Shown here: positions 39,156 to 42,100 of the stretch, one piece after another
Numbering within the stretch: position 1 is the first letter of the stretch
Layout of the letters: each line of letters begins with the position of its first letter
Source of the DNA: Chitinophaga pinensis
GTDB taxonomy: Bacteria; Bacteroidota; Bacteroidia; M30B66
NCBI GenBank assembly: GCA_945883545.1
Contig: CAMCXT010000007.1
Location: forward strand, 18,445-82,444
Direction: 5' to 3'
DNA: 64,000 nt
Notes under the pieces: model-generated
The model's database searches: none
Told to the model about the DNA's origin: nothing
The model's input: only the letters and a program-made list of their open reading frames with translations
Made by a program: the position numbers and the translations under genes

Positions 39156-42100
39156 ATGGAACCCAATTTCCGAGAAATCGCACAGAAGTGGCAAAAAACC
39201 TGGAAAACTTCAGGAATTTACAAGACTTCAATCGACCCAACACGCCCTAAATACTATGTTTTAGACATGTTTCCTTATCCATCAGGAGCTGGACTACACG
39301 TTGGGCATCCTCTCGGATATATTGCCTCCGATATTGTTTCACGATACAAACGATTAAAAGGCTTCAACGTTTTGCACCCAATGGGCTTTGATGCCTTTGG
39401 ATTGCCAGCCGAACAATACGCCATCCAAACAGGGCGCCATCCGGCGGATACTACCGCAGAAAACATCGCTCGATACAAAGAACAGCTCGACAACATTGGC
39501 TTTTGCTACGACTGGAGCCGTGAAGTGAATACCTCCGATCCGAAGTATTACAAATGGACACAGTGGATCTTTCTGCAGCTTTTCAAATCTTGGTTCAATC
39601 TTGAAACACAAAAGGCAGAATCCATCCAATCGCTCATCGCGAAATTTGAAAATGGTGGAAGTGCAGTTGCCAAAGGAGCTTGCGGAGAACATGAAGCTTT
39701 TTCAGCATCTCAATGGATGCAATTCTCCGAAACCAAGCAGCGAGAAATTCTGATGCAGTACCGCTTGGCGTACCAAGATTATTCAACCGTAAATTGGTGT
39801 GAAGCACTTGGAACCGTTTTAGCTAACGATGAAGTGAAAGATGGTTTTAGTGAGCGCGGCGGACATCCAGTAGAAAAACGCAGAATGCGTCAGTGGTTTT
39901 TACGAATCACTGCTTATGCAGAACGTTTGTTGAACGATTTGGATGGCCTCGACTGGACCGATTCGATGAAGGAAATGCAGAGAAACTGGATTGGGAGGTC
40001 GGAAGGTGCAATGGTGCGGTTTGACCTCTCCCCCAACCCCTCTCCACAGGAGAGGGGGGCGTCATCAACTTTCACTTCAAAGGATTTAATAAGCGACCCT
40101 TCGGTTTCAAGGACTGATACAATAGAAAGTGGGGCGTCTCAAACAGGTCTAGTTCAAGAACTCCCAAGTCCATATCATCATACAACTCCGGAAATCTGGA
40201 ATGCACTAATTTCAAAGGCGAAAGAAATGAGGTCAAACATGACCCCATCTGAAAAGCTACTTTGGGAAGAACTAAGAGGAGGAAGATCTGGGTTGAAGTT
40301 CAGAAGGCAGCATATTATCGATCGGTTTATTGTTGATTTTGTTTGCTTGTCGGCAGGAATCGTTATTGAGGTTGATGGAGAAATTCATAACGACCAAAAA
40401 GAACACGACGAAGGGCGAACAGTTGAGCTAAATCGGAATGGATTCCAAGTCGTTAGGTTTACGAATGAAGAAGTAAATTCTGATTTACATTCCGTTGTTG
40501 AACAAATCATTTTTGCTTGTGTGCAAAGGAAACTTTACAGTGAAATAGATTTCATTCAACTTGCAAAAGAAGATGAAGAGGGCTACTCAGCAACTCCCCC
40601 CTCTCCTCGTGGAGAGGGGCCGGGGGAGAGGTCAGATAAAGCTGATTTGATTTCAACAGATTCAGTTTTACTCTCCAGCCCTCAAAGTAATACTGCAACT
40701 CCCCCCTCTCCCCGTGGAGAGGGGCTGGGGGAGAGGTATATCGAAGTCTTCACCACCCGTCCCGATACCATCTTCGGAGTCGATTTCCTCACACTCGCGC
40801 CTGAACATGAATTGGTTGCCGAAATCACCACTGATGCGCAACGTGCTGAAGTGGAAGCATACGTGGGCACCGCTAAAAACCGCAGCGAGCGTGAGCGGAT
40901 GGCAGATGTGAAGCGCATTTCTGGTGTTTTCACAGGTGCTTTCGCCAAGCATCCATTCACTGGAAACCCAATTCCGGTGTGGGTTGGAGATTATGTTTTG
41001 GCAGGATATGGTACAGGTGCTGTGATGGCCGTACCGGCTGGAGATCAGCGCGATTGGGATTTTGCGAAACACTTCAATATCCCGATTGCCGAAATTTTGG
41101 TAGATATCGACATCTCCGAAGCAGCCAATCCAACCAAGGAAGCAATCTTGAAAAATTCAGGTTTCCTCGACGGACTCACCGGTTATCAAGGAATTCGAAA
41201 AGCCATCGAAGAAATCGAAAAAGCAGGCATCGGAGCAGGCAAAGTGAATTACCGCTTACGTGATGCAGGGTTTAGCCGCCAGCGTTACTGGGGCGAGCCA
41301 TTTCCTATTGTTTACCGTGAAGGCGCAGCTTTCGAGTTGGAAGATGGCCAACTTCCGCTAGAACTTCCAGTGATGGAAGACTTCCGTCCAACCGGACAAC
41401 CAGAAAGCCCACTAGCAAAATCTGGCGATTGGCTCGAAGCCCCCGAAGGCAAACGTGAAACCGATACCATGCCTGGCTATGCAGGATCATCTTGGTATTT
41501 CCTTAGATACATGGATGCCAACAACGATGAAACCTTTGTAGGCAAAGAAGCTGAAGCCTATTGGCAGGATGTGGATTTGTACATCGGTGGAACCGAACAC
41601 GCAGTTGGACACCTTTTGTATTCCCGTTTTTGGCAGAAAGTTCTGTTCGATTTAGGTCATGTAACTACCCATGAACCTTTCAGAAAACTCATCAACCAAG
41701 GGATGATCTTGGGAAGGTCGAATTTTGTTTATCGTGTTGGAGGTGACAATAAATACTTATCAGCAGACTTGCTCAAAGCTCATCCAGAGCTAAAAACTTC
41801 TGCGCTTCACGTGGATGTGAACATGGTGAAAAACGATATCCTCGACCAAGAAGCTTTTCGCAATTGGAGACCAGAATTCGCTGGTGCAGAATTTATCACC
41901 AACGCTGAAGGCAATTACGTTTGCGGCGTTGAGGTGGAGAAGATGTCGAAGTCGAAATACAATGTGGTAAACCCCGACGACATCATTTCAGAGTATGGAG
42001 CCGACACTTTGCGCTTGTACGAAATGTTCCTCGGACCTTTGGAGCAATACAAACCTTGGAATACCAACGGAATCGAAGGCGTTTACCGTTTCTTCAAGAA

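What the first reader, a model, noticed from the sequence alone, without database searches (positions are those of the whole stretch)
40024..40737. A DUF559/Vsr-like endonuclease cassette sits in frame inside the editing domain of leucyl-tRNA synthetase
Seen: leuS is one open frame of 1155 codons, and a 714-bp (238-codon) block at 40024-40737 separates MVRFD from YIEVFTTRPDT. The block carries a complete-looking DUF559 domain and inverted terminal repeats, and its length is a multiple of three. Known: DUF559 proteins belong to the PD-(D/E)XK/Vsr-like nucleases; Rickettsia palindromic elements are a precedent for in-frame repeats inside proteins. Inference: a selfish nuclease element can enter coding sequence as a translated, tolerated domain in a beta-hairpin loop of CP1, with the host gene still working. 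It would differ from inteins and introns, because nothing needs to be spliced out. This is the best candidate in the window for an undescribed kind of mobile element.
Basis: partly seen in the sequence, partly recalled or inferred. Interest (0 to 1): 0.93.

Follow-up and report, generated by a model that had tools for sequence, protein, structure and literature searches.

The report
Translated homing nuclease inside LeuRS
A predicted DNA-cutting domain bounded by DNA palindromes sits in frame inside the only leucyl-tRNA synthetase gene found in this bacterium, and related copies sit in frame in many other conserved enzyme genes; they are likely selfish elements that spread by homing and would stay in the finished protein instead of being spliced out.

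Summary
In detail: leuS is one open frame, and a 714-bp block at 40024-40737, bounded by inverted palindromes, encodes a complete DUF559 domain. No second full-length leuS and no other DUF559 was found in this genome.

It is a mobile insertion, not a LeuRS domain. Of 118 complete leuS, 39 carry a long insert in this loop, all with DUF559; the state changes at least 19 times on well-supported branches. Two short loops keep a palindrome or remnant.

It is general: IleRS, MetRS, MetH, IcmF, RecG, RecJ and HsdR carry in-frame copies. Catalytic D, E and H persist in 237 of 242 embedded copies.

Best evidence of spread: in recG of three species the element is nearly identical (dS 0.02-0.03) while recG has dS 0.26-0.40; differences resume 15-72 bp outside. 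The fold matches homing endonuclease I-Bth0305I.

I infer a translated, unspliced, homing-type element. Cleavage, homing and LeuRS activity are untested. Ten searches of an open-access library showed no such report in their listings; passages of four papers were read.

The parts
39156..42623 (+). leuS, leucyl-tRNA synthetase with the in-frame insert (1155 codons from the ATG; the frame can also start at TTG 39123)
   Evidence: (TIGR00396 leuS_bact, E 3.8e-282)
40024..40737 (+). inserted element, ACCTC...GAGGT, 714 bp, translated in frame
   Evidence: empty loops in relatives
40024..40059 (+). left terminal palindrome (head CCTCTCC plus hairpin CCTCTCC-ACA-GGAGAGG)
40209..40517 (+). DUF559 (PF04480) nuclease domain; E, D, E, H and D residues invariant in 52 aligned copies
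40590..40632 (+). internal copy of the right palindrome, 105 bp upstream of the terminal copy
   Evidence: relative G299 has five such palindromes at 105-bp spacing
40702..40737 (+). right terminal palindrome, inverted relative to the left one
40752..40769 (+). TTRPDT motif of the LeuRS editing domain, starting 15 bp after the element's last base
   Evidence: five of its six residues invariant and the P nearly so in 40 aligned LeuRS

Best explanation
The block is an in-frame insertion of a palindrome-bounded DUF559 nuclease domain into leuS, and it most likely is a selfish homing element that spreads between alleles of conserved genes and would remain in the translated enzyme instead of being spliced out. 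Shown here: the frame is open through both junctions. Related genes exist with the loop empty, with the element, with a different element, and with a leftover palindrome. The nuclease keeps its catalytic residues and is under purifying selection where that could be measured. In recG of three species the element is far younger than the gene around it. Inferred: the DUF559 domain, made as part of the host protein, recognises and cuts the empty allele in a related genome near a conserved motif. Repair from the filled allele then copies the element in. The ends lie in a poorly conserved loop, so the host enzyme tolerates a tethered extra domain, and only insertions with no net frame change survive in an essential gene. 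Later the element decays or recombines out, sometimes leaving a short palindromic peptide, and the cycle can restart. How the element first reaches a new gene is open; action of the nuclease on the terminal palindromes is the likeliest route.
For: Sporadic state: 39 of 118 complete leuS (the window's included) have a long loop-A insert and 39 of 39 carry DUF559; 23 state changes, at least 19 forced by well-supported branches. Sister genes differ: Segetibacter L152 filled, L197 empty; L170 filled, L196 a lone palindrome; L171 filled, L095/L172 a shortened remnant. Element turnover at one site: L160/L161 hosts 87% identical, domains 49%; L169/L182 91% and 57%. Recent spread: recG of G084, G289 and G568, host dS 0.26-0.40, DUF559 dS 0.017-0.034; 3-5 differences in the 438-bp insert against 137-226 outside, Fisher p 7e-6 to 3e-13; these genomes hold no other DUF559. 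Copies cluster by site: 38 label changes against a shuffled mean of 114.5; 80 of 85 copies are not closer to the other copy in their own protein than to a copy at the same site elsewhere. Constraint: domain dN/dS 0.03-0.10 in four leuS pairs, flanks 0.13-0.21 in the same pairs; D, E and H all kept in 237 of 242 embedded copies. Fold: homing endonuclease I-Bth0305I E 1.6e-4, TM 0.74 on the target. Sites: leuS loops A and B and the recG loop are at about the 7th percentile of conservation or lower while the 15 residues downstream are at the 89th-98th. Predicted model: strand 281-291, disordered linker, DUF559, disordered linker, strand 528-533.
Against: No cleavage, target site or homing event was observed. 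Differences resume within 15-72 bp outside the recG element, so there is little co-conversion, unlike classical homing tracts. DUF559 and LeuRS identities correlate across filled leuS (Mantel r 0.56), so part of the pattern is vertical. 35 of 88 embedded copies show no inverted repeat better than 30 shuffles. Dispersed palindromes and a nuclease-free in-frame copy are not predicted by pure homing. No target duplication could be defined. The dN/dS values rest on few pairs, three of the four with dS above 1; L160/L161, with different elements, gives 0.24, and in five further pairs dS of the domain is saturated. The segment upstream of the leuS loops is only moderately conserved (70th and 43rd percentile).
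Confidence: 0.68

Rival explanations
1. A transposon-like element: the DUF559 nuclease acts on its own terminal palindromes and moves both itself and short nuclease-free copies, as RAYT transposases do for REPs. Site clustering would then reflect vertical descent and tolerance of a few loops.
For: Outside leuS, 18 palindrome sites are dispersed in G000, 15 of them in pairs or triples 98-163 bp apart (collapsed by eye); one pair lies in frame in IcmF with no nuclease. In the family, 5 of 5 genomes with DUF559 have the palindrome; of 5 without, 4 have none and fragmentary G304 has one; in G299 all ten matches lie inside leuS. Across 296 genomes, 29 of 35 with 10 or more palindromes have a strong DUF559, against 97 of 261 others (Fisher 2.8e-7; cut-offs of 5 and 20 give 8e-10 and 3e-6). 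Two copies in one helicase gene (P0015) are 98% identical.
Against: 80 of 85 copies are not closer to their own-protein copy. Single-copy genomes share a young element at one recG site. 6 of 35 palindrome-rich genomes lack a strong DUF559 (two of these have a weak one), and 97 of 126 strong-DUF559 genomes have fewer than 10 palindromes of this sequence.
Confidence: 0.2
2. A beneficial nuclease domain (for example anti-phage) that happens to be fused to housekeeping enzymes and is spread by ordinary recombination and selection.
For: Purifying selection on the domain and near-universal catalytic residues.
Against: No PADLOC match at E 0.01. Insertion in unrelated hosts, different elements at one site in sister genes, remnants in unfilled genes, and divergence that changes sharply near the element edge fit a selfish element better.
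Confidence: 0.07
3. An ordinary ancient LeuRS domain that many lineages lost.
For: DUF559 and LeuRS identities correlate; loop A is filled in several families; one origin of the leuS-A domains is not excluded by the domain tree.
Against: Unlike domains and shifted edges at one loop in sister genes; two different leuS sites; the same domain in many unrelated enzymes.
Confidence: 0.02
4. An intein or intron that is spliced out, or an assembly chimera.
For: In-frame nuclease insertions in conserved genes are typical of inteins.
Against: No splicing-domain family in Pfam or NCBIfam scans at E 0.001; no intron family by Rfam; insert edges vary and end in palindrome-coded residues. The same arrangement is in a second genome at 97% LeuRS identity and in cultured Leeuwenhoekiella and Taibaiella.
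Confidence: 0.03

Closest known systems
EDxHD / Vsr-like homing endonucleases (I-Bth0305I)
   Same: Fold match E 1.6e-4; invariant E, D, H and D in order; a predicted nuclease inside a host gene with homing-like spread. PMC9403480 (passage read) already assigns a cyanobacterial DUF559 gene to this family.
   Different: The homing endonucleases described in PMC3943268 (passages read) are in introns or inteins or are free-standing. Here the domain is translated inside the host enzyme with no splicing module detected.
Inteins with homing endonucleases
   Same: In frame, in conserved genes, next to conserved motifs, sporadic, apparent allelic spread.
   Different: No splicing domain and no fixed insert edges; predicted to stay in the protein.
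REP sequences and Rickettsia palindromic elements inside ORFs
   Same: Palindromes read in frame inside genes, including tRNA synthetases and repair genes (PMC3733652, passages read).
   Different: As described in those passages the inserts are short palindromes encoding peptides. Here palindromes bound a nuclease domain; nuclease-free copies also occur.
LAGLIDADG endonuclease fused in frame to fungal rps3
   Same: A homing endonuclease fused in frame to a host protein (PMC7902536, passage read).
   Different: rps3 there is itself encoded in a group I intron. The present elements mostly have host sequence on both sides, often keep terminal palindromes, and occur in many gene families.

Membership tests
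Intein | protein-splicing (Hint) domain | tested here: not met
   Pfam and NCBIfam scans of the insert show only DUF559/REase models
Group I/II intron | catalytic RNA core | tested here: not met
   Rfam scan of 39000-42700: only a sub-threshold whalefall-1 match, E 0.2
EDxHD homing endonuclease | shared fold and E-D-H-D residues | tested here: met
   the motif name comes from the literature, and assigning these residues to it is mine
EDxHD homing endonuclease | cleaves the empty allele and copies itself by homing | not testable with these tools
   only indirect: young recG elements at one site
Vsr mismatch endonuclease | close structural match to Vsr | tested here: inconclusive
   1cw0 E 0.038, 1vsr E 0.1, behind I-Bth0305I
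REP/RAYT system | HUH tyrosine transposase within or next to the REPs (definition recalled) | tested here: inconclusive
   the only domain found in the insert is DUF559 or REase-like; the rest of the genome was not searched for RAYT
Rickettsia palindromic element-like ORF palindrome | palindrome inserted in frame in a gene | tested here: met
   the nuclease cargo is outside that definition
Insertion sequence | recognised transposase and target-site duplication | tested here: inconclusive
   no transposase family in the insert; duplications could not be read because empty loops have diverged

The most novel reading that the evidence does not exclude
A new class of mobile element: a protein-resident homing nuclease that needs neither intron nor intein. 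It lives as a permanent, tethered domain of essential enzymes and invades empty alleles across species through conserved motifs beside tolerant loops. It also drives dispersed nuclease-free palindromic satellites, at least one of them translated in frame.
Probability: 0.5. Interest if true: 0.95.

Novelty: categorically new. Interest (0 to 1): 0.9.

Why it matters
Mobile nucleases inside essential genes are usually thought to need self-splicing to be tolerated. If these elements work as inferred, a parasite can instead be a permanent domain of the host enzyme. They would offer natural experiments on where essential enzymes accept a foreign domain. They would give a route by which enzymes acquire nuclease fusions and low-complexity peptides. 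They would also explain oddly long annotated LeuRS, MetH, IleRS and RecG proteins. The empty and filled genes in cultured species make the question directly testable.

Tried and rejected
Ordinary LeuRS domain, intein, intron and assembly chimera were tested and set aside (see rivals). A defence role had no PADLOC support. G297's second DUF559 hit is a partial match inside a RecQ-like helicase (by eye) and was not counted. GIY-YIG nucleases were checked as a second in-frame family: among the listed matches in 118 genomes (list cut off) I saw two in frames above 400 residues, G109 and G029, and these were not followed. In the plasmid and phage collections 39 and 3 records match, all under 60% identity. 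My first regex classification of leuS loops dropped 46 of 137 loci and was replaced by an alignment; 19 incomplete leuS were then left out. The short IcmF insert is 133 bp from ACCTC to GAGGT, not a multiple of three, so its exact ends are unsure although the frame is open. Counts are not prevalence estimates: those loci were chosen as relatives, for long frames or matching empty ones, or by an insert-bearing query. The table behind one search was transcribed by hand. Of 14 papers that mention DUF559, I read passages in one (PMC9403480) and saw the other 13 only in the listing.

Full report
OBSERVATION. leuS is a single open frame, 39156-42623 from the ATG. The 714-bp block 40024-40737 runs ACCTC...GAGGT and has 36-nt inverted ends, 83% complementary. 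The palindrome pattern has 4 matches in the window and 0 in 100 shuffles. The block holds DUF559, E 3.6e-34, at 40209-40517. A second right-end palindrome lies 105 bp inside the first. Relative G299 has five at that spacing. The genome (93% complete, 119 contigs) shows no second full-length leuS and no other DUF559.

IT IS AN INSERTION. Close relatives were examined first. Same-genus G297 and G299 and same-family G300 and G302 are filled; G301 and G303 are empty; G298 has a loop of normal length whose DNA is a shortened palindrome. In G296 the matches to the two leuS parts nearly abut and no DUF559 is found, so it looks empty; G304 is cut by a contig end. The leuS of filled G302 is interrupted downstream of the insert. 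I then examined 137 leuS loci, of which 118 were complete (the window's included; four pairs identical); the other 19 were dropped. Inserts above 60 residues occur at loop A in 39, all 39 with DUF559, and at a second loop B in 11, of which 9 have DUF559; one gene has both. On the host tree (quick method), with insert columns left out, the A state changes 23 times, at least 19 forced by well-supported branches. Loop A of L196 is a lone palindrome while its sister L170 is filled. Cultured isolates with the loop-A insert include Taibaiella soli and three Leeuwenhoekiella species, so it is not an assembly artefact of one metagenome.

IT IS GENERAL. In 296 genomes of the phylum, 170 have DUF559 at E 0.001. 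By eye, 44 of the listed matches besides the window's own lie in open frames of at least 270 residues; the list was cut off by the tool. I fetched 40 of these 44. Of ten hosts scanned, NCBIfam confirms methionine synthase, fused IcmF mutase, RecG, HsdR, coproporphyrinogen oxidase and HisF above cut-off; two RecB-like helicases, PurQ and L080 match only below cut-offs. Other hosts were named by eye, among them N6-methylases and a Mod subunit; for L067, L068, L077 and L080 I have no host name. A few are terminal fusions, not internal inserts (HemF, HisF, PurQ). Among proteins of 641-2040 residues, 2213 match the DUF559 region at E 1e-5, with 120 listed. Scanned examples are IleRS, MetH and RecJ (above cut-off) and MetRS (only its C-terminal model above cut-off). 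Of the 120 listed proteins, 39 have two or three matches to the domain, one of them doubtful; the ranking favours multi-copy proteins.

HOW IT SPREADS. Domains cluster by host gene and site: 38 label changes against a shuffled mean of 114.5, although the tree has only 107 columns and the protein list favours matches to LeuRS. Only 5 of 85 copies are closer to the other copy in the same protein than to a copy at the same site elsewhere. Caveats: two of the five had no same-site copy to compare, two of the 85 are a leuS copy and a neighbouring stand-alone ORF in locus L162, and unnamed sites were pooled as one label. The five include a helicase gene with two copies 98% identical. recG gives the cleanest case. 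At least 6 of 119 recG genes found in one genus are filled, as is G289 from the earlier sample. In G084, G289 and G568 the recG genes have dS 0.26-0.40 but the domain 0.017-0.034. The 438-bp insert has 3-5 differences; the rest has 137-226 (Fisher p 7e-6 to 3e-13). The nearest differences lie 15-72 bp outside. Each of these three genomes has only that DUF559. The simplest reading is that the element reached the same spot in recG genes that had already diverged. Two of 24 empty recG genes, L276 and L288, have a longer loop that I read as a remnant. Turnover also shows in leuS: sister genes 87-91% identical carry domains only 49-57% identical. Against pure mobility, host and domain identity still correlate (Mantel r 0.56).

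CONSTRAINT AND STRUCTURE. Domain dN/dS is 0.098 (G000/G297), 0.029, 0.035 and 0.051 in the four leuS pairs with usable dS and similar elements, with flanks at 0.13-0.21; dS exceeds 1 in three of them. L160/L161, which carry different elements, gives 0.24, and five pairs are saturated. D, E and H are all kept in 237 of 242 embedded copies (one doubtful hit left out, the window's copy counted twice). The predicted domain (pLDDT 87.8) matches 3hrl (E 1.8e-7) and homing endonuclease I-Bth0305I (E 1.6e-4) ahead of Vsr. The predicted fused LeuRS (pLDDT 79.6) has a LeuRS fold. In it the insert joins strands 281-291 and 528-533, and stretches on both sides of the nuclease have pLDDT under 50. The leuS loops A and B and the recG loop are among the least conserved stretches of their proteins, and the segment just downstream among the most conserved; upstream this holds for recG but less for leuS. 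This suggests why such sites recur: a conserved DNA target beside a tolerant loop. That reading is inference.

PALINDROMES. In G000 the palindrome has 33 overlapping forward matches and 0 for the reversed control, which I collapse to 21 sites, three of them in the leuS insert. One pair lies in frame in IcmF with no nuclease. Two others fall in stop-to-stop frames of 436 and 480 codons that I did not identify, and the rest in none above 103 codons. In the family, 5 of 5 DUF559 genomes have the palindrome; of 5 without DUF559, 4 have none and fragmentary G304 has one. In G299 all ten matches are inside leuS. Across the phylum the association is strong but incomplete (29 of 35 against 97 of 261). 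Inverted ends better than 30 shuffles are found for 53 of 88 embedded and 13 of 18 stand-alone copies. So the nuclease may also move palindromic copies, my main rival.

WHAT IS KNOWN. No splicing domain or intron was found. Ten searches of the open-access library listed no title or abstract start that reports in-frame DUF559 elements. I read passages in four papers only, and the library lacks most subscription papers. Databases already list such proteins as leucine--tRNA ligase or methionine synthase. The parts have precedents: EDxHD homing endonucleases, palindromes in ORFs, and an rps3 fusion (passages only). The combination of translated, unspliced, nuclease-bearing, palindrome-bounded and allelic spread fits no class that I tested.

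SHOWN VERSUS INFERRED. Shown: in-frame insertion, sporadic distribution, remnants, constraint, and an element younger than its gene in recG. Inferred: cleavage, homing, tolerance by the enzyme, absence of splicing, and any action on palindromes.

Noticed in passing
G000:C80 (L125:469-4074 +), not in the window: IcmF mutase of the same genome carries a palindrome pair in frame without a nuclease; the protein is about 33-41 residues longer there than relatives L072 and L070.
   Followed up: partly
L064 (hsdR): One HsdR frame appears to hold both a GIY-YIG domain (by eye) and DUF559 in frame, so a second nuclease family may use the same way of life.
   Followed up: partly
L130 (G122), leuS loop B: Loop B holds an insert of about 130 residues with no DUF559 match.
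   Followed up: no
P0015 and P0018: Helicase-like proteins hold two similar DUF559 inserts each (98% and 88% identical within the protein).
   Followed up: partly
P0121-P0151: Related DUF559 domains are fused to coproporphyrinogen oxidase and to uroporphyrinogen-III synthase (Pfam listing; several named ones are Fodinibius or Balneolaceae), suggesting movement between haem genes.
   Followed up: no
G302:C12, leuS: The filled leuS of G302 is split into frames of 880 and 245 codons downstream of the insert; gene decay or assembly error.
   Followed up: no
L187 and L195 (leuS loop A); L139, L155, L163, L169, L056 (loop B): Loops lengthened by palindrome-like peptides such as SPSPSERAGER but no nuclease: remnants or small copies.
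   Followed up: partly
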